Shown: positions 26,517 through 42,304 of the stretch, in pieces
Numbering within the stretch: the stretch's first letter is position 1
Layout: every line of letters starts with the position of its first letter
The notes under the pieces: generated by a model
Told to the model about the DNA's origin: nothing
The model's input: only the letters and a program-made list of their open reading frames with translations
The model's database searches: none
Made by a program: the position numbers and the translations under genes
Assembly: GCA_938049385.1 (NCBI GenBank)
Contig: CALIBQ010000022.1
Location: 1-64,000, forward strand
Source: an uncultured Anaerolineae bacterium
GTDB taxonomy: Bacteria > Chloroflexota > Anaerolineae > JACIWP01
Length of the DNA stretch: 64,000 nt
Direction of reading: 5' to 3'

Positions 26517-28007
26517 TTACTGCACCTCCTCTTTCGCGGCGGGTGAGGAAGCGCCGGCGCTTGGGGACAACCGGCGTTCCGCCCGCTCCAGAATTTCGTC
26601 CAGCCGGCGGCGCTGTGCGTCGGAAAGGGGTGCCGGCCGGTGGGTTTCCAAAATCTGACGGGCCTTCTGGTTGGCTCGTTCGCCGGCGGTGAGGCCGCCG
26701 GCCGCCTCCCATTCGGCATACCCCCACTTATCGAACAGGGAAGCCAGCCACCCTTCGCGGCAGTGGCGCAGGGTATGCTCTGTGGAGAGATAGTCCCCGC
26801 CCGGCCCCACCTGGTCAATCACTTCCAGCGCCAGGGCCTCCGGGGACATATCTACGCGGCGCAGGGTGTGCCGCACCATGTCAATGACCTCGTTCATGGT
26901 TACCAGCATTTCCAGCGAGCAGGTCAGCCCGCTTTCAATGTAGCCCACATCGTGCACCAGGTTGGCGCCGCTGAGGGCGGCCGCCATGATCCACAGCGCG
27001 CCCTCGGCCGCGGCCTGCTGGTCGAAGAGCTTGGCATCGGAACAGCCGGCGAAGCCCCAGGTCGGCAGGCGGTAATAGCGCCCCATCTCGGCCATCGCGC
27101 TGGTCATCAGCATGAACTCGGGCGCGGCATACATATTGACCATGGTGCGCATGTCCAGCGGGCCGGTGCCGGAGCCGAAGATGCAGGGCGCGCCCGGCCG
27201 TTCGAGCTGAGCGATGACCAGGCCGCTGAGCAGTTCGGCGTTGGTGACCACCATGGCGCCGGCCGGCGTGATAGGCGCCGCCGCCCCGGAGATACTGCCG
27301 GGCACGTAGGCCGCCGGCAGGTTACTGCGGGCGATGAACAGGAGCTTATCCACTGCCTCAAAGGAGTGCTGTAGCGGCGTGGTCGGCTCGGCATACAGGA
27401 TGAGGAAGGGCCGCCGGCGCAGATCCTCCATATCCTGGCGCATGGCCGCGGCCATCGCGACGATCAGCTCCAGGCCGGCGGCATCGTGCGCAGTGTAGAC
27501 GATGGGCTTGGTGGAATGGGTCAGCATGGCTTCGAAGCTGTGCACGTCCGAGACGGCAATAGGGACATCGGACGGCAGGGCCATGGACATAATGAAGCTG
27601 ATGTGCGGCAGGGCGTCGCAGACCCGCGCGGCGTCCGCCACATCGGCTTTGCGCGCCGGCCGGCGTTCCCCCGTGTGTACATCCCGCACGTTGGGCAGGT
27701 CGGAGCCGGTGCCGAAATAGACGTTCCTGCCCTCCAGGTACATGGCCGGCTGGCCCAATCGGTCATAAATCGTGATAGAAGGCGGCGCGGTACGCACCGC
27801 CTGCTCCACCAGGTGGGGTGGGATGCGCACCAAGTTGCCGTCGCTGATGGGACAGCCGGCCTGTTCCAGCAGGGCCAGCGCGCGTTCGTGATGCACGCGC
27901 ACGCCGGTGCGCCGCAGTACCTCCAGCGTCGCCAGGTGCAGGCGCTCTTTATCTTCTTCGTTCAGGATAGCACACTGCCAGCCCGAGATTATCGGTTCCC
28001 AGGACAT
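26517..28007 (-). CDS. MttB-family (non-pyrrolysine) trimethylamine/quaternary amine methyltransferase homolog
   Basis: LEVLRRTGVRVHHERALALLEQAGCPI...VRIPPHLVEQAVRTAPPSITIYDR...PTWGFAGCSDAKLFDQQAAAEGALWIMAAALSGANLVHDVGYIESGLTCSLEMLVTMNEVIDM; uninterrupted ORF (no internal TAG); RBS GGAGGAG supports start at 28007. Confidence 0.88.
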   Translation of the reverse strand: MSWEPIISGWQCAILNEEDKERLHLATLEVLRRTGVRVHHERALALLEQAGCPISDGNLVRIPPHLVEQAVRTAPPSITIYDRLGQPAMYLEGRNVYFGTGSDLPNVRDVHTGERRPARKADVADAARVCDALPHISFIMSMALPSDVPIAVSDVHSFEAMLTHSTKPIVYTAHDAAGLELIVAMAAAMRQDMEDLRRRPFLILYAEPTTPLQHSFEAVDKLLFIARSNLPAAYVPGSISGAAAPITPAGAMVVTNAELLSGLVIAQLERPGAPCIFGSGTGPLDMRTMVNMYAAPEFMLMTSAMAEMGRYYRLPTWGFAGCSDAKLFDQQAAAEGALWIMAAALSGANLVHDVGYIESGLTCSLEMLVTMNEVIDMVRHTLRRVDMSPEALALEVIDQVGPGGDYLSTEHTLRHCREGWLASLFDKWGYAEWEAAGGLTAGERANQKARQILETHRPAPLSDAQRRRLDEILERAERRLSPSAGASSPAAKEEVQ

Positions 28008-28044
28008 CCGGTTTGATGCTCCTCCATGACTTGGCACAGACATT

Positions 28045-28080
28045 GCGCATGGGGCTCGCGAGCGTTCGCGAGCCCCATGC
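28045..28080 (-). promoter_or_regulatory. Strong intercistronic stem-loop between SBP and second mttB-like gene
   Basis: 16-bp perfect stem CGCATGGGGCTCGCGA-GCGT-TCGCGAGCCCCATGCG, no T tract. Confidence 0.75.
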
Positions 28081-28107
28081 GGGCACGTCGTCGCGAGCGA
28101 AACCGGA

Positions 28108-29733
28108 TTACGCCGGCTTCATGAACTCCGCCTGCGGCACGCCGTGCGGCGTCACCGCCGGCACAATCTTTGGCGAGTACACGTAGGCATACACGCCGTG
28201 GGTGATCCAAATGCTGTGGCAGGCGGCGTCGAACAGCTTTTCCATCTCGATGTAAATCTTCTCGCGCTCGGCGTCATCCATGGTCACCAGACCCTTGCGG
28301 TGCAGTTCGTCAAACTCGGGACTGCACCAGCGCTGCCAGTTCCACACGCCCACCTGCTCGCAGGTGAACCACATGGTGGCCCAGGCGGGGTCAGGCAGCA
28401 TGGAGTAGTTGCCGGAGAAGAGCTCGACCTCCTTGCCTTTCTCGCCGGCGCCGATCTGCCAGAAACTGCTGGAGTCCATTGGATTGATGGTCAGGTTGAT
28501 GCCGATTTCCTTTAGGTTCTGCTGGGCGATCTCGGCCCAGGTGCGGTACTCGGTGGTGTCCTGGATGTCAAAGCGCAGGTCGAGCGAGGTCACGCCGGCC
28601 TCGGCCAGGAGCGCCTTGGCTTTCTCCACGTCCCGCTCGTACACCGGCGCGTCCTTCCAGTGCCCCAGCAGTCCGGGCGGGATGAGGGTCTTCTCGCGCT
28701 CGGCTTGGCCCATGTAGGCCGCCTGGAGGATGGCCGGCACGTCAATGGCGTAGCGGATGGCCTGGCGCACGCGGATGTCCTGCAGTTTGGGATGCTCGAC
28801 GTTCATGCCGATCCAGCGGTAGCGCAGGGACGGGTACTTGGCGAGCTTGAGGTTGGGATGGTTCTCGAAGCGCGGGATAGAGGCGATGGAGATGCGGCTG
28901 AAGTCCACCTCGCCGGCCTCCGCCGCGATCTCGGCCGCCTTATCGTCCTCGATGGGGATGAAGTGAATCTCATCCCACGGCGGCGGGTCGCCGTGATACT
29001 CAGGGTTGCGCTTCAGGACGATCTTCTGCTTGGGCATCCACTCGGAGAAGAGGTAGGGGCCTGTGCCGACGATGTCGGTCGCGAATTTCTCGATGCCCAC
29101 TTCCTCGACGTACTTCTTGCAGACGATGGAGCCGCTGGCCACCGGCAGGGTGGTCCTCCACAGCGGGGCGAAGGGTTCCTTCAGGATGATCTTGCCCCGA
29201 TACTTGTCGATAATTTCCACGTGGTCCAGCGTGGCCCAGTCGTCGGCATAGGCGGCCTTCAGCTCGGGGTCAATGAAGCGCTCATAGGAGTACTTGACAT
29301 CCTCCGTGGTCAGCTCGCCGTACCCCCTGTGCCATTTGACCCCCTCTTTGAGCTTGAACTCGATGGTCAGGCCGTCCTCGGACTGCTTGATTTCCTCCAC
29401 CAGTTGGTTCACCAGGTCATAGGAGTTGGGGCCGTAGCGGACGAGGCCTTCCATGACGCAGTGGGCGACCACATCATCGTTTTGCGAGATGCGGAAGCAG
29501 GGGTCGAGGTTCTGGATATCGCCGTACAGGCGCACGCGCAGGATTTTGGGGCCGGCCGGCGCTGGGGTAGCCGTCGGCGGTACGGGTGTGGCCGTCGGCG
29601 CAGGCGGCTTGGTGGCCGGCGGTGCCGCGGTCGGTGCCTCCGTGGGCTTCGGTGCGCAGGCGTTCAACGCCAACAGCGCCGAACCGACGCCGGCAACTTC
29701 AAGGAAGCGCTTGCGAGTCAGTTTACGGGCCAT
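28108..29733 (-). CDS. ABC transporter substrate-binding lipoprotein, family 5 (peptide/nickel type), Tat-like signal
   Basis: MARKLTRKRFLEVAGVGSALLALNACAPKPTEAPTAAPPATKPPAPTATPVPP... then SBP_bac_5-like ...VKYSYERFIDPELKAAYADDW..., ...GTGPYLFSEWMPKQKIVLKRNPEYHG.... Confidence 0.92.
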   Translation of the reverse strand: MARKLTRKRFLEVAGVGSALLALNACAPKPTEAPTAAPPATKPPAPTATPVPPTATPAPAGPKILRVRLYGDIQNLDPCFRISQNDDVVAHCVMEGLVRYGPNSYDLVNQLVEEIKQSEDGLTIEFKLKEGVKWHRGYGELTTEDVKYSYERFIDPELKAAYADDWATLDHVEIIDKYRGKIILKEPFAPLWRTTLPVASGSIVCKKYVEEVGIEKFATDIVGTGPYLFSEWMPKQKIVLKRNPEYHGDPPPWDEIHFIPIEDDKAAEIAAEAGEVDFSRISIASIPRFENHPNLKLAKYPSLRYRWIGMNVEHPKLQDIRVRQAIRYAIDVPAILQAAYMGQAEREKTLIPPGLLGHWKDAPVYERDVEKAKALLAEAGVTSLDLRFDIQDTTEYRTWAEIAQQNLKEIGINLTINPMDSSSFWQIGAGEKGKEVELFSGNYSMLPDPAWATMWFTCEQVGVWNWQRWCSPEFDELHRKGLVTMDDAEREKIYIEMEKLFDAACHSIWITHGVYAYVYSPKIVPAVTPHGVPQAEFMKPA

Positions 29734-29852
29734 ACTTGTCCCTCCTTCTCCCTGAATTCGTAATGGAAATGGAAACGACACAAGACCTGCATCATGGTTT
29801 TTGTCCTCCGCATCCCCCCTTTCTGCGCCGAAAGGATCAAGGTAGGGCGAGA

Positions 29853-31295
29853 TCACTCGCCCAGGCGTTCTCGACGGGCACGCGCCAGGATGTTGTCCAG
29901 CTCGCGCAGGGCGTCCGCCGGCCAAGGCTCCACCACATAGGTCTGCAGGATTTCGCGGGCACGCGCCCGCGCCCGCGCCAGCACGCCCACGGTGGACTCA
30001 TCGCCGGCACCGGTGCGCCGTTCGCTGACCCCTGGCATCCATATTTCGCCGCGCCGCATGTGCATGACCGTATGCGGCTCGCCCAGGAACACGCCGTCGC
30101 GCGCCACCACCTCGCGGATGACGTCGAAGGCCAGCGTGTCCTGATTCACCTCACAGCCCTGCACCAGGCGCTTGAGCAAGCTGATAATCTCGTTGTCAAT
30201 GACGGCGATCTCATAGCCGCCGGCCAGCCCGCTGTCAATACCGCCGACGCCGGACATGATGTCGGCGCCGGCCAGGGCCGGCATGACGGCGTTGGCGAAG
30301 CGCTCATAGGCGAATTGGGCATCCACGCGGTCTGCGCTGGTGCACAGGCCGTAGGTGTCGCAGGTCAAGCCCAACCGATGGGCGAGCTGGACGGCGCAGG
30401 CACCGGCCAGGCCCACCTCCGGTCCGCCCCAGGAGGACACCGCCGTGCGCAGGTCAATGGGATTGATGCGTGAGCAGTAGGTCACCGGGGCGCCGGGCCG
30501 CACGGCGGCTACCAGCACGAAGCTGGCCAGCACTTCGGCATGCTGTTGGGCCAGGGCGCCGGCCAGGGTGATGGGGCCGGTGGCGCCCAGGGACGGCGCC
30601 GGCAGGGAATGGAAGGGCGCGCCGGCCTCCGCCACCGCCATGATGGCCGCTGTGACCCTTTCGGTGAAGGTCAATGGGCTGACCGGGGAGACGCTGATGG
30701 ACATGGTGGGATGCCGGCGGAAGGCTTCCTCTCCGCCGCACAGCACCTGGGCCATCTGGATCATGTACGGCACGTCGGCGGGGTTTTCCACTGCCGCGGC
30801 GGAGACAGGTTTGCGAGTGCTCTTGAGCATGGCAGAGGTGGCGGCCAGCTCCATGATCTCCGCCGGCACGTCTTGGGGGCCGAACAGGGGCGTGATAACG
30901 TCCACATGCTCCAGCGCGTCCAGCAGGCGGGTGATGTCGGCGACGTCCTGGGTGGTGGCCGGCCGGCGTTTCCCCGTCTCCAGGTCAATCACAAAAGGAG
31001 GACCGCCGCTGTTGTGGAAGCGGATAGCCCCGTCGCCAAAGCGGAAGGCCAGCTTGCCATCCGGGGTATACTCCTCCTGATGCGGGGTCACGTTCTGCAG
31101 TGCCCACTGCACCACCTGGGGCGGGATATACACGCGATGCCCCTCGACGCGACAGCCCCGGCCGTGGAGCATCTCGCGAGCGCGATCATGTTCCAGCGCG
31201 ATGCCCACTTCGTCCAGGATGCGCAGGGCCGTCTCTTCTATTTGCCGCAGTTCATCCTCGTTCAGCAACTGCAGTACCACGCGGCGGGTAGTCAT
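29853..31295 (-). CDS. MttB-family (non-pyrrolysine) methyltransferase homolog, paralog of 26517..28007
   Basis: MTTRRVVLQLLNEDELRQIEETALRILDEVGIALEHDRAREMLHGRGCRVEGHRVYIPPQVVQWALQNVTP...GVGGIDSGLAGGYEIAVIDNEIISLL; no internal TAG. Confidence 0.88.
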   Translation of the reverse strand: MTTRRVVLQLLNEDELRQIEETALRILDEVGIALEHDRAREMLHGRGCRVEGHRVYIPPQVVQWALQNVTPHQEEYTPDGKLAFRFGDGAIRFHNSGGPPFVIDLETGKRRPATTQDVADITRLLDALEHVDVITPLFGPQDVPAEIMELAATSAMLKSTRKPVSAAAVENPADVPYMIQMAQVLCGGEEAFRRHPTMSISVSPVSPLTFTERVTAAIMAVAEAGAPFHSLPAPSLGATGPITLAGALAQQHAEVLASFVLVAAVRPGAPVTYCSRINPIDLRTAVSSWGGPEVGLAGACAVQLAHRLGLTCDTYGLCTSADRVDAQFAYERFANAVMPALAGADIMSGVGGIDSGLAGGYEIAVIDNEIISLLKRLVQGCEVNQDTLAFDVIREVVARDGVFLGEPHTVMHMRRGEIWMPGVSERRTGAGDESTVGVLARARARAREILQTYVVEPWPADALRELDNILARARRERLGE

Positions 31296-31596
31296 GCGGT
31301 CATTCCTTTCCTTTGCGTCGCAGTCGTCAGCCTTGAAAATGGGAAAAGCAAAGGGCATTCTGCGTTGAATGCACTGCGTGGATTATCCGGAGCGTTGGGG
31401 TTCGTTCGCGTGCAGATGGGACAGGGGAAAGCTCGTGATCGACGCGCTCCGGCGCGGCTGTTTCACACACCCATCATCTGGCCCAGGTGCGGCAGTGATC
31501 CTTCCTCCTCCGTGAATGGGCTGTACAGATGATTCTCAGACAGCATGACAGCAAGGGTGAATAATGCCTTGTCAGACCATGCCCACTTTTATTATA

Positions 31597-32433: not shown

Positions 32434-32462
32434 TTGTCTTGCCCCGGTAAAGATGGTATAAT
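32434..32462 (+). promoter_or_regulatory. Sigma70-type promoter upstream of the 32.6-40.4 kb cluster
   Basis: TTGTCT-17 nt-TATAAT; a second extended -10 (TGGTATACT) at 32582-32590. Confidence 0.6.
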
Positions 32463-32624: not shown

Positions 32625-32864
32625 ATGGATCGGCAGGCTCTGATTGCGGAAATCGCCCGCCGGCTCAAGCGCCGGCATTTGGCCGCGCCGGCGGTGCTCC
32701 TGCTGGAGTCTCACAGGCCTCTCGGGTTCGTGGTCTCCCAGGCGATGCTACTGCTGGAACCACTGGTGGAATGGTTCCTTGGGCCGACCTCCTGGCGCGA
32801 GTACGCGGCTGTCCTGGAGGACCCCCAGGGCATTGAGCGGTTGCTGGAGGAGCTGGAATCCTGA
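32625..32864 (+). CDS. Small 79 aa hypothetical protein
   Basis: MDRQALIAEIARRLKRRHLAAPAVLLLESHRPLGFVVSQAMLLLEPLVEWFLGPTSWREYAAVLEDPQGIERLLEELES. Confidence 0.6.
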   Translation: MDRQALIAEIARRLKRRHLAAPAVLLLESHRPLGFVVSQAMLLLEPLVEWFLGPTSWREYAAVLEDPQGIERLLEELES

Positions 32865-32907
32865 GCGGGGGGCCGGCACCCGGGGCCGGCTCAGGAGCAG
32901 ATGCGAT

Positions 32908-33699
32908 ATGGAAGCCATCCAATCGACCGTGACGGGCATCTGGGACAGCGCGGCGCCGGCCATCATGGGCGCGCTGCTTCTGCTCCTGGTGCCCACCCTG
33001 TATTTCTTCACCCTGCGGGCGCGTGCCCTCCTGCGCGCCGGCAAGCCGCTCCCCCTGCGGCGCATGCCGGCGTTTGAGCGCCTGTCCCGCGCCATGGATG
33101 CCGCCGCCGAGACCGGCCGGCCGCCCCACATCTCCTTAGGCACCGGGGCGGTCGGGGATTCCAGCACCGCCGAGAGCCTGGCCGCCCTGCACTTGCTGGC
33201 CCCGCTGTCCCAGCAGGCCGCCGCCTACGGTGTTCATCCGGTGGTGACGGTGGCGGACGCCGGCCTGATGCTGGCCGCGCAGGACCGCCTGCGGCAGGCC
33301 TTCCGCCAGCACGGTCCGGAGAGGGAGTATCGGTTCACCGATGTGCAGTTGATCGCGCCGGAGGCGACCGCCTATGCCGCCGGCGCCATGGGAATGCTGA
33401 GCCGGCAGGAGTTGAGCGGGAACGTGATGGCCGGCGCCTTCGGCGAGGAATACTTTTTGATGGCCGAGGTTGGCGCCTGGAAACAGCCCGAACAGGTCGC
33501 CGGCGCGGCCGACCCGGGAGTCCTGCCCTTCGTCCACGTCACCAGCGAAGCGCCCCTGCTGGGAGAAGAGATGTTCACCGCCGGCGCCTACCTGGGCAAA
33601 TGGGCGTCCCATATTGGGAGCCTCTTCGCCCAGGATTGGATGCGCGTCCTGTTGATCCTCATCATCCTGGCCGGCATGTTCCTGGCCTCGTGGCACTGA
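32908..33699 (+). CDS. DUF6754-like membrane protein
   Basis: N- and C-terminal TM segments; ISLGTGAVGDSSTAESLAALHLLAPLSQQAAAYGVHPVVTVADAGLMLAAQDRLRQAF...; start set at ATG 32908. Confidence 0.7.
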   Translation: MEAIQSTVTGIWDSAAPAIMGALLLLLVPTLYFFTLRARALLRAGKPLPLRRMPAFERLSRAMDAAAETGRPPHISLGTGAVGDSSTAESLAALHLLAPLSQQAAAYGVHPVVTVADAGLMLAAQDRLRQAFRQHGPEREYRFTDVQLIAPEATAYAAGAMGMLSRQELSGNVMAGAFGEEYFLMAEVGAWKQPEQVAGAADPGVLPFVHVTSEAPLLGEEMFTAGAYLGKWASHIGSLFAQDWMRVLLILIILAGMFLASWH

Positions 33700-33736
33700 C
33701 CATGAAGCACATGCACCGCCAGGAAAGGAGGAAGGC

Positions 33737-34354
33737 GTGAAACGCATACTGCCCACTGTCGTGGCCATGGTCGTCGGCATCATCGTCCTGATTGATTTCT
33801 TCGTTGATGTGGGCTACATCAACCTGATGGGCCGGCTCTTTGTGGACTGGGCGGTCATCCTGACGGCGTTCGCCCTCATCCTGGGGGTCATCAACCTCTT
33901 CCTGGTGCATTTCCGCCGCATCCGCACGCGCCAGAAAGGATGGCCTTACAGTATTATCCTCATCCTGGCGCTGTGGACGGTGCTGGTGCTGGGTTTGCTG
34001 GACCCCGCCGGCCACCAGGGCCAGAGCATCCGCTGGATCTTCCAGCACATCCAGTACCCCCTGCAGGCGGCGTTCTTCGCCCTTACCGCGGTCTTCTTGT
34101 TCACTGCCATATACCGCGCCTTTCGTCTCCGCCGGGGCGAGAACGTCTGGTTCGTGCTGGCCGGCATCCTGGTCCTGTTGGGGGCCACTGCGGTGGGAGG
34201 TTGGCTGTGGGATGGCTTCGCGTCCATCCGGGAGTGGATCATGAATGTGCCGGCGCTGGCCGGCGCCCGCGGCATTCTCATCGGCGTTGCACTGGCCGCG
34301 ACCATTACCGGCCTGCGTCTGCTGTTGGGAGTGGATCGGCCCTACGCGGAGTGA
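33737..34354 (+). CDS. Multi-pass membrane protein
   Basis: TM-rich ORF with AGGAAAGGAGG RBS; no family recognised. Confidence 0.75.
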   Translation: MKRILPTVVAMVVGIIVLIDFFVDVGYINLMGRLFVDWAVILTAFALILGVINLFLVHFRRIRTRQKGWPYSIILILALWTVLVLGLLDPAGHQGQSIRWIFQHIQYPLQAAFFALTAVFLFTAIYRAFRLRRGENVWFVLAGILVLLGATAVGGWLWDGFASIREWIMNVPALAGARGILIGVALAATITGLRLLLGVDRPYAE

Positions 34355-34380
34355 GGGTCCGGATATAGGAGTGGCGCCAG

Positions 34381-36339
34381 ATGATTTACTGCCCCAACTG
34401 CGGGACCGCCAATCGTGATGGGAGCAAATTCTGCAATGAGTGCGGATACCGTCTGACCGGCGCGGAGGGGGTGCTCTGCCCGATATGCGGCGCCCAGAAC
34501 CGCGTCGGCAGTGTCTTTTGCACGCAGTGCGGCTCGCGGCTGATACCGGTAGAAGCGCCGGCGGAACCGCCGGCACCGCCAACCCCGGCGGCCGGCGAAG
34601 AGGCTGTGCCCGATTGGCTGGCCAAACTGCGCGAGGCCGCACAGCGCGAAGTATCTATCGGTGAAGAAGCGGAAGCTCTGGGACAGCCCGAGGAGGAAGC
34701 CCCGCCCGCCGGCCCGCCTGCCGAGGAACTGCCCCAGGCACCGGTCTTTGTGATTGAAGAGGGTGGGGCGGAATGGGCGCCGCCCGATTGGCTGAGCGAA
34801 CTGCGTGCGCGCGCCGTGGGGGAGCCGGAACAAGCGCCGGCCGCGCCGTCCGAACCCTTGTCCGAAGCGTCTGCACCACTGGTGTTTGCGGAAGAAGAGG
34901 CGGTCTCCGAAGTGCCTGACTGGCTCCAGAGACTGCGCGCCGAGATTTCCGCGGAAGAAGCGCCGGCCCCTCCCCCCACCGGACCCCTCGACGCGGAAGC
35001 GGCTGTGCCGGCCTTCCCTGAGGAAGCCGCACCTGTGTTTCCAGGCGGCCTGGAGGAAATCCCCGACTGGCTGAAGGAGCTTGGGCCGCCGCCTTCCGAG
35101 CAGGAGGTCATCCCTCCAGGTCCCGGTGTCATCCCCGGGGTAGCGGTGGAAGAGGAGGAACTGCCGGCCTGGCTGAGGGAGGCGACCGGCTTCGGGGAAG
35201 CGCCGGAAGTGCCGGCGGAGGGTGTGCCGGCCGGCGAAATTCCAGAGTGGATCATGGCACTGCGCCCGGGCGCCCAGGAACCGACCATTGAGGTCCCGCC
35301 GGAAGGGTATGAAGGGGATTCGTACAGCGAGGGCATCCTGGCCGATGTGCAGGGGCTACTGCCCATCGAACTGCCGGTGGCAAAACCGCCGGCGCCGGAG
35401 GAAACCGGCAGTCTGCTGGAAAGCGTGCCGGCCGAGGACGAGGCGGTCCAGATATTCCGACAGGTCATCGAGTCGAAGCCGCCGGCCCGCCGGGTGCCCA
35501 AGCCATCCCGCCCTCGCATCGGGCGCGTGCGGCTGTTGGGCGCCCTGGTGCTCATCGGCGTGATTTGCCTGTCCCTACTTTCTCCAGGACAGTGGTTCAT
35601 AAGCACTGCACGTGCAGTTCCTGATCCGGTGAATGCCGCCTATGAGGCTGTTGAAGAACTGGCACCGGGCGATGCGGTAGTAGTGGCCTTCGATTTTGAC
35701 CCGGCGAGCGCCGGCGAGATGACCCCGCTGGCCCAGGTGCTGACGGAGCATCTGATGACGCGCGGCGCGCGGGTGATCGCGGTCAGCACCCTGCCGGCCG
35801 GCCCTCAGGTCGCTCAGGATATCCTCGACCAGGCGGCCGCGGCGCGCGGCGGCAAGTCCTACGGCACCGATTACGTGAATCTGGGATATCTGCCCGGGCG
35901 CGAGGCCGGCATGCGCGATTTCCTGCTGAATCCCTTCAATGCAGAGCGCCGGGACTTTGTGGGCGGCCGGCCGATCGCGGAGATACCGGTGCTCCAAAGG
36001 CTCCAGAGTATCCAGGATGTGAAACTGCTGGTGATTATCGGCGCCAGCGCGCAGGATGTGCGCTGGTGGATGGAGCAGGCGGCCGGCCTGGCGCGGGTGC
36101 CTATGGTCGCCGGCATCAGCGCCGCGGCAGAACCCTATATCCTGCCGTATTATCAGGGAGAGGGCCGGCTTCTCCAGGGAGTGGTGGCCGGCGTGTTGGG
36201 AGCCGGCGATTACGGCGCGCTGATCGGTTCTCCGGAGCCGGCGGCGCGCCTGGAGGCCCTGCAGTGGGCCCTGCTGGTGGCGCTGATTGCGATGCTCATC
36301 GTCGCGGCGGTATCGGTGTTCACGCCGGCGCGCACATGA
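34381..36339 (+). CDS. Double zinc-ribbon protein with repeated PDWLxxLR motifs in an acidic linker, TM and C-terminal extracytoplasmic/membrane domain
   Basis: YCPNCGTANRDGSKFCNECGYRL and LCPICGAQNRVGSVFCTQCGSRL; six PDWL/PAWL/PEWI-type repeats; two TM segments. Confidence 0.8.
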   Translation: MIYCPNCGTANRDGSKFCNECGYRLTGAEGVLCPICGAQNRVGSVFCTQCGSRLIPVEAPAEPPAPPTPAAGEEAVPDWLAKLREAAQREVSIGEEAEALGQPEEEAPPAGPPAEELPQAPVFVIEEGGAEWAPPDWLSELRARAVGEPEQAPAAPSEPLSEASAPLVFAEEEAVSEVPDWLQRLRAEISAEEAPAPPPTGPLDAEAAVPAFPEEAAPVFPGGLEEIPDWLKELGPPPSEQEVIPPGPGVIPGVAVEEEELPAWLREATGFGEAPEVPAEGVPAGEIPEWIMALRPGAQEPTIEVPPEGYEGDSYSEGILADVQGLLPIELPVAKPPAPEETGSLLESVPAEDEAVQIFRQVIESKPPARRVPKPSRPRIGRVRLLGALVLIGVICLSLLSPGQWFISTARAVPDPVNAAYEAVEELAPGDAVVVAFDFDPASAGEMTPLAQVLTEHLMTRGARVIAVSTLPAGPQVAQDILDQAAAARGGKSYGTDYVNLGYLPGREAGMRDFLLNPFNAERRDFVGGRPIAEIPVLQRLQSIQDVKLLVIIGASAQDVRWWMEQAAGLARVPMVAGISAAAEPYILPYYQGEGRLLQGVVAGVLGAGDYGALIGSPEPAARLEALQWALLVALIAMLIVAAVSVFTPART

Positions 36340-36355
36340 TGGAGGAAAGCGGGGG

Positions 36356-37039
36356 ATGGAACTGCTGAAGGGCCTTGACCTGACCGCTGTGCAAGTCTGG
36401 GTGGCCTTCGTGCTCACCCTGATGGTGTTCAGCTATATCTTCGGGGATAATCCCCTCTTCCGTCTGGCGGAGCATATCTTTGTCGGCACAGCCGCCGGCT
36501 ATGTCACCGTCCTGGTCTATCATACCATATTCCGCCCCCGTCTGCTGGAGCCGCTGGCGCAGGACCCTGCCGGCCGTGTGTACCTGCTGGTGCCGGTACT
36601 GCTGGGCCTGCTCCTGCTGGCAAAGGGGAAGCGAAGCACAAGCTGGATGGGCAATATCTCCATGGCCTGGCTGTTCGGGGTGGGGGCCGCGCTGGCGCTG
36701 GGCGGGGCGTTGCTGGGCACCCTGGCGTCTCAGCTCCGATCTTCCTGGGTCTCGCTGAACCCGGCCGATTACGCCGGCCATCCCATGGGCCTGATCAATG
36801 CCCTCCTGCTGGCGCTGGGCACCATCGGCGTCCTGCTCTACTTCTACTATACGGAGCCAGGGGTGAAAGGGGCAGGCCGACTGCTGGCCGGCATCCGCAA
36901 AGGGTGGGGCCGGCTGGGACGCTGGTTCATGCTGGTGACCTTCGGCGCGCTGTTCGCCAGCGCCATCATCGCCCGCTTCACCCTGCTGGTGGATCGGCTC
37001 CATTTCCTCCTTCAGACCTTGGGTCTGCTGGGGGGGTGA
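36356..37039 (+). CDS. Multi-pass membrane protein
   Basis: MELLKGLDLTAVQVWVAFVLTLMVFSYIFGDNPLFRLAEHIFVGTAAGYVTVLVYHTIFRPRL...; about 6-7 TM. Confidence 0.75.
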   Translation: MELLKGLDLTAVQVWVAFVLTLMVFSYIFGDNPLFRLAEHIFVGTAAGYVTVLVYHTIFRPRLLEPLAQDPAGRVYLLVPVLLGLLLLAKGKRSTSWMGNISMAWLFGVGAALALGGALLGTLASQLRSSWVSLNPADYAGHPMGLINALLLALGTIGVLLYFYYTEPGVKGAGRLLAGIRKGWGRLGRWFMLVTFGALFASAIIARFTLLVDRLHFLLQTLGLLGG

Positions 37040-37079
37040 TAGGCATGAGACGGCCGGCGGGACTTCGGAAAAGGAGTAC

Positions 37080-38822
37080 ATGGGTATGAGCGATTCCGGG
37101 CTTCTCTCCTCCATCCTGGCGGTGGACTGCGGCAATCTGTTCACCCGAGCCACACTGCTGGACGTGGTTGACGGGCAGTTCCGCCTCTTGGGGCAGGGAC
37201 GCGTGCTCAGCACCCATCGTCCGCCGGCGGCGCACATCATGCCGGGCGTAGTCGGCAGTGCCGTCCAACTGGAGGCTCTCCTCGGCCGTGACCTGATGGA
37301 CAAACAGGGCATGCTCATCATGCCGGAACGCGAAAGCGGCCAAGGGGTGGATGTCTGCGTGGTGAGCACGAGCGCCGGCGAACCCCTGCGCGTCTTCCTG
37401 GCCGGCCTGGCCCATGACGTGAGCCTGGCCAGCGCCCGACGGGCGTTGGCCGCCTGCCCGGCGGTAATAGTGGACACCCTTTCGCTGGAGGACCGCCTGG
37501 ACCAGCCGGAGGGCATGGTCCGCTTGCTGGAGCGCCTGGACCAGGCGCAGGCGGATGCCCTGGTATTGGTAGGAGGGATAGACGGCGGGGCCTCGCGGCG
37601 CATGCTGGACACGGCCGGCGCTCTGGCCTTGGCGTACCAGGCGCGGCCGGAGGATGCGCGGCCGCTGGTGGTGTACGCCGGCGATACCGGCCTGCAGGAG
37701 CAGGTGCACGCCATCCTCGGGGAGCTGTGTCAGGTGCGGGTGGTGGACAACGTGCGGCCGGCGCTGGACGTGGAAAACCCCGCGCCGCTGGCAGAGGCTG
37801 TCCAGCGGCTGTACATGGAACTGCGCGCCGAGCGGGTGCCCGGGTTCGAGACGCTGTGCAGTTGGTCCCACGCGGAGCCTCTGCTGGCGCCGCAAGCCGT
37901 GCGCTATACCCTGGGGTATCTGTCCGCCCGCTATGGGCTGAAGGCGGTAGCCCTCCAGGTGGGCGCCGGCCAATCGGCGGTGTACTGGGCGAGCGGCGGC
38001 CAGCCAGAGGTGGTCATGCGGCCGCAGTGGGGGCTGAAGCACGGGCCGGCCATCGCTGAACAGCGAGGCATGGATATGCTCCGGCGTTGGATCCCGGAAC
38101 CCCCGGAGCCGGACGAAGCTTGGGAGATGTTATACAACCTGTCCCTGTATCCCAGCGCGGTGCCTGGCAGCATGCGAGAGCTTCGGCTGACCCATGCACT
38201 GACGCGCGAACTGCTGGCTGGACTGCTGGAAGATGCCCGGCCGGCCTTCCCCCAAGAGAAAGACCGCCTGCCCAATCGTTGGGACCTGATCATCCTTTCC
38301 GGCGCGGTCTTTGAGAACACTGCCGCTCCAGGACAGGCGGTGTTGATGATGCTGGATGCGCTACAGCCGGCCGGCATCAGCACGGTGGTCGTGGACGTGC
38401 TCTCGCTGATGACAGCCGCCGGCACTATCGCGATTGTCGAGCCGCTGGCCGCGGCGCACCTGCTGGAGCGCGATGCCTTCCTAGGCCTGGGGACCGTCAT
38501 CGCCCCATACGGCCAGGGCAAGAAGGGGAGCACTGCCCTGCGCCTGCGCGTGCGCTATGAGGACGGCCGGAGCCTGGACGTTGAGGTGGGGAGCGGCACC
38601 ATTGAGGTCATACCGCTGGGGCCTGGGCAAAAAGCGCGGCTGGAAATCCGGCCGGCGCGCGGCTTTGACCTGGGCTGGCGGGGACGCAAGGCGGTGGTCG
38701 AGGTGGACGGCGGCACGTTGGGCATCGTCGTGGACGCGCGCGGCCGGCCGCTCCCACTGGATATCCCGCCGGCGGAACTGCAGGCCCGCATCCAGCAGTG
38801 GCACTGGCAGATCGGCGCCTGA
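37080..38822 (+). CDS. MutL-like (glutamate mutase L family) actin-fold ATPase-like protein
   Basis: SILAVDCGNLFTRATLLDVVDGQFRLLGQGRVLSTHRPP...DALVLVGGIDGGASRRMLDTAGAL...LIILSGAVFENTAAPGQAVLMMLDALQP. Confidence 0.8.
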   Translation: MGMSDSGLLSSILAVDCGNLFTRATLLDVVDGQFRLLGQGRVLSTHRPPAAHIMPGVVGSAVQLEALLGRDLMDKQGMLIMPERESGQGVDVCVVSTSAGEPLRVFLAGLAHDVSLASARRALAACPAVIVDTLSLEDRLDQPEGMVRLLERLDQAQADALVLVGGIDGGASRRMLDTAGALALAYQARPEDARPLVVYAGDTGLQEQVHAILGELCQVRVVDNVRPALDVENPAPLAEAVQRLYMELRAERVPGFETLCSWSHAEPLLAPQAVRYTLGYLSARYGLKAVALQVGAGQSAVYWASGGQPEVVMRPQWGLKHGPAIAEQRGMDMLRRWIPEPPEPDEAWEMLYNLSLYPSAVPGSMRELRLTHALTRELLAGLLEDARPAFPQEKDRLPNRWDLIILSGAVFENTAAPGQAVLMMLDALQPAGISTVVVDVLSLMTAAGTIAIVEPLAAAHLLERDAFLGLGTVIAPYGQGKKGSTALRLRVRYEDGRSLDVEVGSGTIEVIPLGPGQKARLEIRPARGFDLGWRGRKAVVEVDGGTLGIVVDARGRPLPLDIPPAELQARIQQWHWQIGA

Positions 38823-38843
38823 GCCCGAGGACGAGAGGGATGC

Positions 38844-39903
38844 CATGTTCTATCCTGCCGAATGCAGAATTTATCATCGCGTGACCATCCGCAAAGAGCG
38901 CCGGCTTCCCCGGCAGGGGCAGATGCTGGTGAAGGACGGCGAGCTGTTGAGCGCGGAAGACCTGATTGGGCGCTGTCATCCCCAGCCCCGCTGGCACCTG
39001 GTGGATGTGGCCAGGCAGTTGGGGCTTGCGCCTGAAAAGGCCGAAACGGCCTTGCAGAGGCACCCGGGGGACATCGTGGAAAAGGGGGAGTTCCTCGCTG
39101 TCACGAAGGGCGGTCTTGGCCTGTTCCGCCGCGTGTGCAAGGCGCCGGCGACTGGCATGGTGGCCGCGTATCACGCCGGCCGGCTGTTGGTCGAGGAACA
39201 GAGGGAAAGCCAGGACCTGCGTGCCCTGGTGCGCGGCCGGGTGGTGCATGTGCGCCCGGGGATCGGTGCGGTGATAGAAGTGCGGGGTGCGTATCTGCGC
39301 GGCGCATGGGGCGCCGGCCCTTCCGCCTATGGGGTGCTGAAGGTGCTGGTAGACACGCCGGCCACCCCTCTGCTGATCAAGGATATTGACATTGGGGCGC
39401 ATGGAGCGGTCATCGTTGCCGGCTGGTGCGCCGACGGCGATGTCCTGCGCCAGGCCGAGCAGGTCCAGGCCCGCGGTATTATCCTGGGCAGTCTCGACAT
39501 CGGCCTGCGCCCGCTGGCCGAGAAGCTGGCCATTCCTGTGGTCATTACCGAGGGGTTCGGCGGCATCCCCATGAACCCGGAAGCTTTTGACCTTCTGCGG
39601 AGCCATCACGGGCGGGATGTGTCCATTTTCACGGGGGAGGGCCTGGGGCCGGAGGTCTTCCTGCCGGATTCCCTGGACGAGCCGCCTCCGCCGCCGGAAA
39701 AGCCGGCGCCGCTGAAGGTTGGGCAAAAGGTCCGCATCATTGGGTATCCCCGGCTGGGCGCGGTGGGGCATATCGTCGAGGTGCTGAGCACACCGCGCCG
39801 GGTGGAAGCCGGCGTGCTGTACGATGGGGTGATGGTGGAGCTGGATCACCATGAGACCATCTTTGTGCCCTGGATGAACGTGGAGCCTATCGGTATCATG
39901 TAG
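38844..39903 (+). CDS. Hypothetical protein, lipoyl/barrel-sandwich-like features with C-terminal KOW/SH3-like segment
   Basis: GDIVEKGEFLAVTKGGLGLFRRVCKAPATGMVAAYHAGRLLVEE..., LKVGQKVRIIGYPRLGAVGHIVEVLSTP.... Domain calls tentative; start set at ATG 38844. Confidence 0.65.
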
Positions 39904-39939
39904 TTTATCGTTCTGATGCTGGAAGGAGAGTAACCGCGT

Positions 39940-40377
39940 ATGGACAAGCAAAATCGGCTGTTTGCCACCATCGCCATCGCGCTGATCGTGCTGTTGGGTC
40001 TGGCACTCCTGGGCATTGGGGGCTGGGCGCTGGTTATCCGGCCCAAACAGCGGGCGGTGCAGGCGGAAGAGACCGCTACCGCCATCGCTATGGTGGCGAC
40101 CCCCACGCCGACTGCTACGGCGACCCTGCCGCCGCCGGCCACCCCTACGCCGCGACCGACCAACACGCCGGTGGTGCCGGCGGTGACCGACACACCCACC
40201 GTCGCGCCGGCGGCCGGCCAGGCCACGGAAACCCCGGCGGCTACCCCACAGGTCACGCCCACGGCCGGCGCGGAGGCTACCCCGCCGCAGACGGGCTTTG
40301 GGCCTGGCAGTTTCCTGGTGCTCGCATTCGCGCTGGCGGCCCTGCTCTTTGGCGCCAGGCGGATGCGCAAAGCCTGA
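39940..40377 (+). CDS. Small surface protein: N-terminal TM, Thr/Pro-rich linker, LPXTG-like C-terminal sorting signal
   Basis: MDKQNRLFATIAIALIVLLGLALLGIGGWALVI...ATPTPTATATLPPPATPTPRPTNTP...EATPPQTGFGPGSFLVLAFALAALLFGARRMRKA. Confidence 0.75.
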   Translation: MDKQNRLFATIAIALIVLLGLALLGIGGWALVIRPKQRAVQAEETATAIAMVATPTPTATATLPPPATPTPRPTNTPVVPAVTDTPTVAPAAGQATETPAATPQVTPTAGAEATPPQTGFGPGSFLVLAFALAALLFGARRMRKA

Positions 40378-40454: not shown

Positions 40455-40489
40455 CAGGTGACAGTCATCGCCCCGATGGCTGTCACCTG
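40455..40489. repeat. TGACAGT/CTGTCA palindromic repeat, copy B
   Basis: 16-bp stem CAGGTGACAGTCATCG/CGATGGCTGTCACCTG with one G:T wobble. Confidence 0.6.
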
Positions 40490-40577
40490 TCGTTTTCCTC
40501 CGCACCGGCGAGAAATAGACACCCTGCGGTGCTGTGGTATAATTGCAACATAAGCGCACCGAGTGTGAGGATGTCGT

Positions 40578-41894
40578 ATGGCACAAACACGGCCCACCGC
40601 AGAAAATACGGCACTGCAAGGGAGCTTTTCCCCCGTTGCCCCTCGTTCCATTGAGGAAACCGGCCTCAACATGGGGCTGATCGCTGACCTGGTGCTCAAA
40701 ATCCTGTACTACGAGGGCTACATGCCGGCGGCCGGCATCGCCGACGCGGTCTGCCTGCCCTTCACCGGCGTCATCGATCAGGTGCTGGAGTTCCTCAAGC
40801 GGGAGCGCCTGGTGGAGGTAAAGGGCTCCAGCGGTGCGGTGCGCGAATCAGCCTATCTGTACGCCATCACCGAGCGAGGTGGGGAGCGGGCGCGCGAACT
40901 GCTGGAACGCTCGCGGTATGTAGGGCCGGCACCGGTGCCGCTGGAGCGGTATAAAGAGGCGGTGCGTGCCCAATCGGTGCGCAGTATTTTCGCCACGCCG
41001 GCCATGGTGCGGGAGGCCCTTTCCCACCTGGTGCTGGACGAGAGCATCATTGACCGGGTGGGGCCGGCCATCAACTCCGGCCAGTCCATCTTCCTCTTCG
41101 GCCCGCCCGGCGACGGCAAGACCTCCATCGCCGAGGCCATTGGCAGTATTATCCTCAAAGGAACTATCTATATTCCCAAGGCGCTGGTCATCGGCGGGCA
41201 CATTGTGACCCTGTATGATGTGGTCAATCATCGGGCGGTCCCCGAGGAGGAGAATGACCGCCATCTGGACAAACGCTGGATCAAGATTCGCCGGCCCAAC
41301 ATCATCGTGGGCGGTGAGCTGACGCTCAACAGTTTGGACCTCATTTTCAACGAGGTTTCCCTGTTTTACGACGCTCCTTTCCAGCTCAAGGCCAACGGCG
41401 GCATGCTGTTGATTGACGACTTCGGCCGGCAGTTGGCGCGCCCGGAGGACCTCCTCAACCGCTGGATCGTGCCCCTGGAAAAAGGGGTGGATTACCTGAC
41501 CCTGCACACCGGACGGAAGATTGAGGTGCCGTTCGATGTGTTGTTGATCTTCTCCACCAACCTCTCGCCGGCCCAACTGGTGGATGAGGCCTTCCTGCGC
41601 CGCATCCAGCACAAAATCTACATCAAAGACCCGACCCTGGAGCAGTATCGCGAGATTTTTCAGCGCGTCTGCGCCCAGCGCGGCGTCCCGTATGATGACA
41701 AGGGCCTGGCCTACCTGCTCAAGGAGCACTATTTGAAGCCGGGCATCAAACTGCGTGCCTGCCATCCGCGCGACCTGATTGACCACCTGGTGGGCATCGC
41801 CCGCTATCGGGGGGTGCCGGCGCGCCTGACGCCGGAATTAATTGACGCCGCCTGGGAGTCCTACTTCGTCAATCTGCAGACCGATGTCTCATGA
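40578..41894 (+). CDS. AAA-type ATPase with N-terminal winged-helix-like region
   Basis: Walker A GPPGDGKTSIAEAIG, Walker B-like GGMLLIDDFGRQ; N-terminal LVLKILYYEGYMPAAGIADAVCLPFTGVIDQVLEFLKRERLVEVKG. Confidence 0.85.
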   Translation: MAQTRPTAENTALQGSFSPVAPRSIEETGLNMGLIADLVLKILYYEGYMPAAGIADAVCLPFTGVIDQVLEFLKRERLVEVKGSSGAVRESAYLYAITERGGERARELLERSRYVGPAPVPLERYKEAVRAQSVRSIFATPAMVREALSHLVLDESIIDRVGPAINSGQSIFLFGPPGDGKTSIAEAIGSIILKGTIYIPKALVIGGHIVTLYDVVNHRAVPEEENDRHLDKRWIKIRRPNIIVGGELTLNSLDLIFNEVSLFYDAPFQLKANGGMLLIDDFGRQLARPEDLLNRWIVPLEKGVDYLTLHTGRKIEVPFDVLLIFSTNLSPAQLVDEAFLRRIQHKIYIKDPTLEQYREIFQRVCAQRGVPYDDKGLAYLLKEHYLKPGIKLRACHPRDLIDHLVGIARYRGVPARLTPELIDAAWESYFVNLQTDVS

Positions 41895-42304
41895 AATGCT
41901 CAGGAGGGAAGCCCATGGATCGCCTGGCACAGCGCATTCGCGAGCGTGCACATGACAATACCATGCCCTGCACGGCGGCCCACGCAGTGGCCTGGGAGCT
42001 GGATGTCTCGCCCCAGAAAGTGGGGGAGATGCTGAACCAGATGCAGATACCCATCACCCTTTGCCAGCTCGGGTTGTTCGGCTATGGGCCTAAGGCGGAG
42101 GGCAAATCCAAGCTCCTGCGGCCCATGACGCGGCTGGATTCCGAGATCGAAGCGCGGCTGAGGGCGCGCGAGCGGGACGGCCGCATCAGTTGCCGCACCA
42201 TCTGGGACATCGCCCGCGAGCTGAACGTGGAGCGGCTGGTCGTGGGCAATACCGCCGATGCCATGGGCCTGCGCATTACCCCATGCCAGTTGGGCTGTTT
42301 CTAG
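41891..42304 (+). CDS. Protein with two tandem copies of a HTH-like domain ending in I-T-x-C-Q-L-G-x-F
   Basis: [38 protein letters not shown] and [37 protein letters not shown]; start overlaps the upstream stop. Confidence 0.75.

What the first reader, a model, noticed from the sequence alone, without database searches (positions are those of the whole stretch)
32625..40377. Uncharacterised eight-gene membrane-associated cluster (possible undescribed system)
Co-directional, tightly spaced genes: 79 aa protein, DUF6754-like membrane protein, two other multi-pass membrane proteins, a double zinc-ribbon/PDWL-repeat protein with a TM and exported-looking domain, a MutL-like actin-fold protein, a barrel-sandwich-like protein, and a Pro/Thr-rich surface protein with an LPXTG-like tail. 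None has a known pathway role that I can name; zinc ribbon, ATPase-fold protein and several membrane proteins suggest a membrane-embedded complex with cytoplasmic energy or regulatory input. Possibly an envelope assembly or secretion-type machine (inference).
Basis: partly seen in the sequence, partly recalled or inferred. Interest (0 to 1): 0.8.

Follow-up and report, generated by a model that had tools for sequence, protein, structure and literature searches.

The report
Uncharacterised eight-gene Chloroflexota envelope operon
Eight neighbouring genes of unknown function form one transcription unit whose order is the same in many members of the bacterial phylum Chloroflexota; they look like an undescribed membrane-spanning complex that joins an actin-like ATPase inside the cell to the cell wall outside.

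Summary
Genes g1-g8 (32625-40377, + strand) are real and tightly packed, framed by a promoter-like site (32434-32462) and a 16-pair terminator hairpin (40455-40489). Flanking genes vary. In 151 Chloroflexota genomes, g2 (DUF6754) is never found without g5 or g6, and g6 and g7 co-occur (83 of 90 and 85).

(1) g6+g7, usually with a zinc-ribbon g4, is an older core; g1-g2-g3-g5 and the membrane part of g4 are an added module. (2) The cytosolic tail of g4 carries repeats of [DE]-[ILV]-P-x-W-[LM]-[RKQ] (175 copies, 0.03 expected), which resembles the FtsZ C-terminal peptide with Trp for Phe. (3) g8 has an LPxTG-like sorting signal, and this genome encodes sortases.

Best reading: an envelope-spanning scaffold linking an actin-fold ATPase module to the wall, probably for septum or wall organisation. 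The complex is well supported; the function is inference (about 0.35). No description was found in the papers searched. Occurrence outside Chloroflexota could not be tested.

The parts
32434..32462 (+). promoter-like site TTGTCT-17-TATAAT upstream of g1
   Evidence: consensus scan, 10 of 12 matches with TG before the second hexamer
32625..32864 (+). g1: 79 aa conserved small protein, no TM segment predicted, no family
   Evidence: also found directly before g6 in a genome where no other membrane-module gene was detected at the locus (L168)
32908..33699 (+). g2: DUF6754 protein, Rossmann-like alpha/beta domain between two TM helices; domain predicted cytosolic
   Evidence: PF20539 E 4e-38; AF2 pLDDT 93.9; no PDB fold match at E<=0.001; charge rule
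33737..34354 (+). g3: polytopic membrane protein (about 6 TM)
   Evidence: conserved in 37 loci; hydropathy; no family above cut-off
34381..36339 (+). g4: zinc ribbons, disordered tail with PxWL repeats, TM, extracytosolic alpha/beta-like domain, TM
34387..34542 (+). two zinc ribbons of g4
   Evidence: PF13240/PF12773
34606..35253 (+). six PxWL motifs of g4 (PDWL, PDWL, PDWL, PDWL, PAWL, PEWI)
   Evidence: sequence; enrichment and position before the first TM
36356..37039 (+). g5: polytopic membrane protein, conserved GDNPLFR and GTLxPQ motifs
   Evidence: conserved in 38 loci; no PDB profile hit
37080..38822 (+). g6: MutL-family (actin-fold) protein with a C-terminal extension
   Evidence: PF13941 E 6e-50, residues 12-465; G18, G295, G408 invariant, T22 and D293 over 90% conserved
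38733..38750 (+). DARGRP motif in the g6 C-terminal domain, absent from the shorter MutL beside a B12-type neighbour (L166)
38845..39903 (+). g7: three-module soluble protein (beta-rich N-terminal part, swivelling alpha/beta, KOW/SH3)
   Evidence: AF2 pLDDT 91.4; foldseek; profile hits to SPT5/NusG
39940..40377 (+). g8: N-terminal TM, Pro/Thr-rich linker, LPxTG-like motif, TM, basic tail
40282..40296 (+). sorting-signal-like PPQTG of g8
   Evidence: sequence; orthologues 39/74 LPxTG, 58/74 PxTG
40455..40489 (+). intrinsic terminator-like hairpin, 16 pairs then TCGTTTTCCT, after g8

Best explanation
The eight genes encode one envelope-spanning complex. In the cytosol, actin-fold g6 and its partner g7 form a nucleotide-dependent core, joined by g4's zinc-ribbon tail and probably g1. 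g4 crosses the membrane and places an alpha/beta domain outside; g2, g3 and g5 form the membrane part, with g2's alpha/beta domain on the cytosolic side. g8 is anchored in the membrane at its N-terminus and carries a sortase-type signal, so it could tether the complex covalently to the wall. The repeated [DE]-[ILV]-P-x-W-L-[RKQ] motifs of g4 act as a multivalent docking strip for a receptor of the kind that binds FtsZ tails, or for g6/g7 itself. Its likely job is to position or couple wall or septum assembly. Shown: operon, conserved order, co-occurrence, domain content, motif enrichment. Predicted from sequence: topology, nucleotide binding, sortase recognition. Inferred: physical complex, docking partner, wall or septum role.
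For: Single transcription unit with flanking promoter and terminator. Same order and strand in every complete locus. Co-occurrence g2/g5 38 of 38, g6/g7 83 of 90 and 85, although g7 is unlinked from the operon in several genomes that keep g1-g6. g6 keeps the actin-fold phosphate and adenosine glycines. 175 full motifs against 0.03 expected and none in 124,133 aa of other ORFs; 418 of 418 PxW[LM] sites lie before the first TM. FtsZ tails of the same clade read DIPAFLRR, DIPAWLRR, or ELPPFLQK in this genome; FtsA, SepF, ZipA and Zap proteins bind that peptide (PMC9939409). g8 sorting signal in most orthologues and two sortase hits in this genome. 16 genomes without a transpeptidase domain have no g2, g6 or g7.
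Against: No interaction was tested. FtsZ tails use Phe, g4 uses Trp; the likeness is a short motif and may be convergent. Several g4 orthologues have few or no PxWL motifs (L027, L052, L064-L066). FtsA and FtsZ are present in this genome, so the system replaces neither. Absence from genomes without penicillin-binding proteins is clade-linked (Dehalococcoidia-type lineages, PMC10608941) and could be mere gene loss. Two of 22 first-set g8 proteins lack the T of the sorting motif.
Confidence: 0.35

Rival explanations
1. A secretion or export machine: g3/g5 form a conduit, g6 supplies energy, g8 is an exported surface part.
For: Two polytopic proteins, an ATPase-fold protein and a surface protein in one operon.
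Against: No secretion ATPase, pilin, channel or accessory family detected; g6+g7 occur without any detected membrane-module gene in about 50 of 151 genomes; flanking genes vary, so no cargo is linked.
Confidence: 0.15
2. An envelope-stress or signalling complex: zinc-ribbon g4 senses outside through its alpha/beta domain and signals inside to g6/g7.
For: Zn ribbon-TM-extracytosolic domain layout; g7 lies next to response-regulator proteins in genomes where it is unlinked; a PspA-like protein lies near two loci (recognised by eye only).
Against: No kinase, protease or transcription factor in the unit; those neighbours are not conserved elsewhere.
Confidence: 0.2
3. g6 is an ordinary B12-mutase accessory protein (GlmL) and the other genes are coincidental.
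For: PF13941 match; weak NCBIfam GlmL scores.
Against: Far below GlmL cut-offs (60 against 475 bits); extra C-terminal domain with DARGRP; no mutase gene beside g6 in the operon loci apart from a B12-binding protein on the opposite strand at L059; a shorter MutL beside a B12-binding-like protein is seen in L166.
Confidence: 0.03
4. Complex as described, but the PxWL repeats dock g6/g7 or each other (multivalent clustering) and have no link to FtsZ-tail receptors.
For: PxWL also occurs in the C-terminal tail of g6 in L054/L055 and in a TPR protein of this genome.
Against: The motif matches FtsZ tails at all its anchor positions except F/W.
Confidence: 0.27

Closest known systems
GlmL/MutL family (PF13941; accessory proteins of B12 mutases)
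   Same: actin-fold MutL domain with conserved glycines in g6
   Different: GlmL equivalog cut-offs not met; C-terminal DARGRP domain; near-constant partner g7; membrane operon; no mutase beside it
FtsA-FtsZ (actin-fold protein that binds the FtsZ C-terminal peptide)
   Same: actin-fold protein paired with proteins carrying D/E-hydrophobic-P-x-aromatic-L-R motifs
   Different: g6 belongs to MutL, not FtsA; motif has Trp and is repeated; FtsA and FtsZ are present separately in this genome
Glp/GlpR of Corynebacteriales (PMC10522489)
   Same: precedent for an enzyme-family protein repurposed with a cognate membrane receptor as divisome scaffold
   Different: unrelated proteins; there the link to FtsZ is experimental
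TcaA/YvbJ-type zinc-ribbon membrane proteins
   Same: N-terminal zinc ribbon, TM, extracytosolic domain in g4 (NCBIfam TcaA matched only at the ribbon, 9.7 against 550 bits)
   Different: different outside domain, PxWL repeats, operon
DUF6754 (PF20539)
   Same: g2 is a member
   Different: family has no described function; no paper in the held library names it

Membership tests
GlmL/MutL accessory proteins (PF13941) | MutL actin-fold domain over the Pfam cut-off | tested here: met
   170.7 bits against 27
GlmL/MutL accessory proteins (PF13941) | GlmL equivalog score | tested here: not met
   60.4 against 475 bits; glmL_fam 51 against 204
GlmL/MutL accessory proteins (PF13941) | linked B12-dependent mutase genes | tested here: not met
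   none in the window operon or fixed beside g6 in the loci inspected; B12-type neighbours at L166 and, opposite strand, L059
FtsA | FtsA family profile match | tested here: not met
   g6 matches only MutL in Pfam and GlmL-type models in NCBIfam; an FtsA-like gene lies before ftsZ elsewhere in the genome (identified by eye and position)
FtsA | binds FtsZ-tail peptide | not testable with these tools
   needs binding assay or complex prediction
FtsZ-tail-like motif (as mimic) | [DE]-[ILV]-P-x-[FW]-[LM]-[RKQ] | tested here: met
   175 W-type copies in g4, 0.03 expected; F-type copies 0
Sortase substrate (g8) | LPxTG-like motif, TM, basic tail, and a sortase in the genome | tested here: met
   39/74 LPxTG, 58/74 PxTG; sortase PF04203 in this genome
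Sortase substrate (g8) | cleavage and wall attachment | not testable with these tools
   needs biochemistry
Secretion system | recognisable secretion ATPase, channel or pilin | tested here: not met
   Pfam and NCBIfam scans
DUF6754 | PF20539 over cut-off | tested here: met
   131.4 against 27 bits
Anti-phage defence or phage gene set | PADLOC or PHROGs hits | tested here: not met
   no PADLOC hit for g1-g8; PHROGs hits only the zinc ribbon of g4

The most novel reading that the evidence does not exclude
A Chloroflexota divisome or wall-organising machine in which a MutL-family actin-fold ATPase works through a membrane scaffold whose cytosolic tail is a string of FtsZ-tail mimics and which is covalently sorted to the wall: a third way, besides FtsA and SepF, of linking cytoskeletal control to the envelope.
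Probability: 0.15. Interest if true: 0.9.

Novelty: categorically new. Interest (0 to 1): 0.62.

Why it matters
A conserved, co-inherited operon spread across a phylum usually marks a core cellular machine, and this one has no named function. The genes match only a DUF, no family, or a misleading 'MutL/glutamate mutase' model. Cell division and wall biology of Chloroflexota, which range from multicellular filaments to wall-less dwarfs, are little studied; this gives concrete genes, motifs and partners to test and a caution against annotating g6 as a B12-mutase chaperone.

Tried and rejected
GlmL function for g6: cut-offs not met, no linked mutase. g6 as an FtsA replacement: an FtsA-like gene and FtsZ are present at C36. 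Defence island or phage origin: no hits. g2 and g4 C-terminal domains as duplicates: hhalign E 0.005 but probability only 7%, and predicted topologies are opposite: undecided. g2 fold assignment: no PDB match at E<=0.001. TPR protein with PxWL repeats as a constant partner: relatives in 93 of 151 genomes but many without PxWL. Flanking genes as functional context: not conserved beyond occasional HEAT-repeat or macro-domain proteins before g1 (HEAT by Pfam in L029; the rest by eye). Search outside Chloroflexota: centre restricted to genome handles, only genome-contig scan already used, plasmids negative for g5, DUF6754 absent from 14 control genomes.

Full report
Anatomy. Eight genes on the + strand run from 32625 to 40377 with short gaps; across loci the median gap is 0 to 4 bases in size for the joins from g1 to g6, -14 for g6-g7 and 45 for g7-g8. 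A promoter-like site (TTGTCT-17-TATAAT, TG-extended) lies at 32434-32462 and a 16-pair terminator hairpin at 40455-40489; the next gene, an AAA ATPase at 40578, has its own promoter-like site at 40516-40543. Consensus matches are not proof of transcription, but they bracket exactly g1-g8. LexA (31733) and the AAA gene are not part of the unit: among the first loci collected the AAA gene accompanies it only in the window and one same-genus genome, and LexA only in the window and, distantly placed, L014.

Conservation. Divergence is large (g6 25-42% identical outside the genus). Pairwise distances of the proteins correlate between genes (Spearman 0.50 to 0.80), as expected for genes inherited together.

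Two layers. In 151 Chloroflexota genomes g2 occurs in 38 and g5 in 40, g2 always with g5 (Fisher 1e-33) and always with g6. g6 occurs in 90 and g7 in 85 genomes (three further g7 matches at E about 1e-4 were set aside as marginal), 83 shared; the two g7-only genomes have a diverged g6 next door. Fisher values ignore shared ancestry. Some genomes, such as those of L149-L156, keep only a zinc-ribbon protein (often with PxW[LM] repeats), g6 and, as a rule, g7; others keep g1-g6 as an operon and g7 elsewhere, next to response-regulator proteins and in several cases near ATP synthase genes. L168 has g1-g6-g7 beside what look like tsa genes. So g6-g7 is a functional pair and g1-g2-g3-g5 with the membrane half of g4 an added membrane module; g8 follows g7 in most complete loci.

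Proteins. g2: AlphaFold2 model with mean pLDDT 93.9, a Rossmann-like domain between two TM helices, no solved structure matching at E<=0.001; charges place the domain in the cytosol. g4: zinc ribbons, long disordered tail, TM, alpha/beta-like domain predicted outside, TM. g3 and g5: about six TM each. g6: MutL-family actin-fold domain with conserved phosphate and adenosine glycines and an extra C-terminal domain with DARGRP. g7: AlphaFold2 pLDDT 91.4; a beta-rich N-terminal part (weak profile match to RNA polymerase beta-prime), a swivelling alpha/beta part similar to RraA and UPF0107, and a KOW/SH3 domain. g8: TM, Pro/Thr linker, LPxTG-like signal, TM, basic tail.

The PxWL motif. g4 proteins of 43 loci hold 428 PxW[LM] sites; 175 fit [DE]-[ILV]-P-x-W-[LM]-[RKQ] against 0.03 expected from composition, and none is found in 265 other ORFs (124,133 aa). 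All 418 sites in g4 proteins with a predicted TM lie before the first TM. FtsZ C-termini of relatives mostly read D-[IV]-P-A-F-L-R, one DIPAWLRR, and this genome ELPPFLQK. The FtsZ peptide is a known hub for FtsA, SepF, ZipA and Zap proteins (PMC9939409). The likeness is therefore a testable lead, not evidence of binding. The motif also occurs in the C-terminal tail of g6 in L054/L055 and in a TPR protein of this genome.

Wall link. This genome has two sortase hits and five transpeptidase hits. The 16 sampled genomes without a transpeptidase domain lack g2, g6 and g7 (p 1e-7, but confounded by ancestry; one of them, G151, has a marginal g7 match at 8e-5 that was not counted).

Limits. Occurrence outside Chloroflexota was not testable beyond plasmids and 14 control genomes. 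No interaction, topology or sorting was tested. The literature check covers only the held open-licence library. Some neighbour genes were recognised by eye and are marked so. The rating 'categorically new' refers to the system as a whole; several of its parts belong to known folds or families.

Noticed in passing
G000:C38 18218-20533 (L196 6219-8534 -): TPR protein with five PxW[LM] motifs next to what look like ndk and a sigma factor; relatives in 93 of 151 genomes, PxWL retained only in some.
   Followed up: partly
40578-41894 and 41891-42304: AAA ATPase (weak similarity to IetA/MoxR-type) and a small protein of no clear family; the small one recurs after g8 in L034 beside what look like moaD and moaA.
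   Followed up: no
26517-31358 (-): Two ORFs that look by eye like trimethylamine-methyltransferase-type proteins flanking a solute-binding-protein-like ORF; no family scan was run on them.
   Followed up: no
L212-L216, L219: In genomes where g7 is not in the operon it sits next to a response-regulator protein, one of which shows a weak MAPKK1_Int (roadblock-type) match, and in several near ATP synthase genes.
   Followed up: partly
L168, L064, L065: g7 (L168: g1-g6-g7) is followed by ORFs that look by eye like the tsa/rimI cluster.
   Followed up: no
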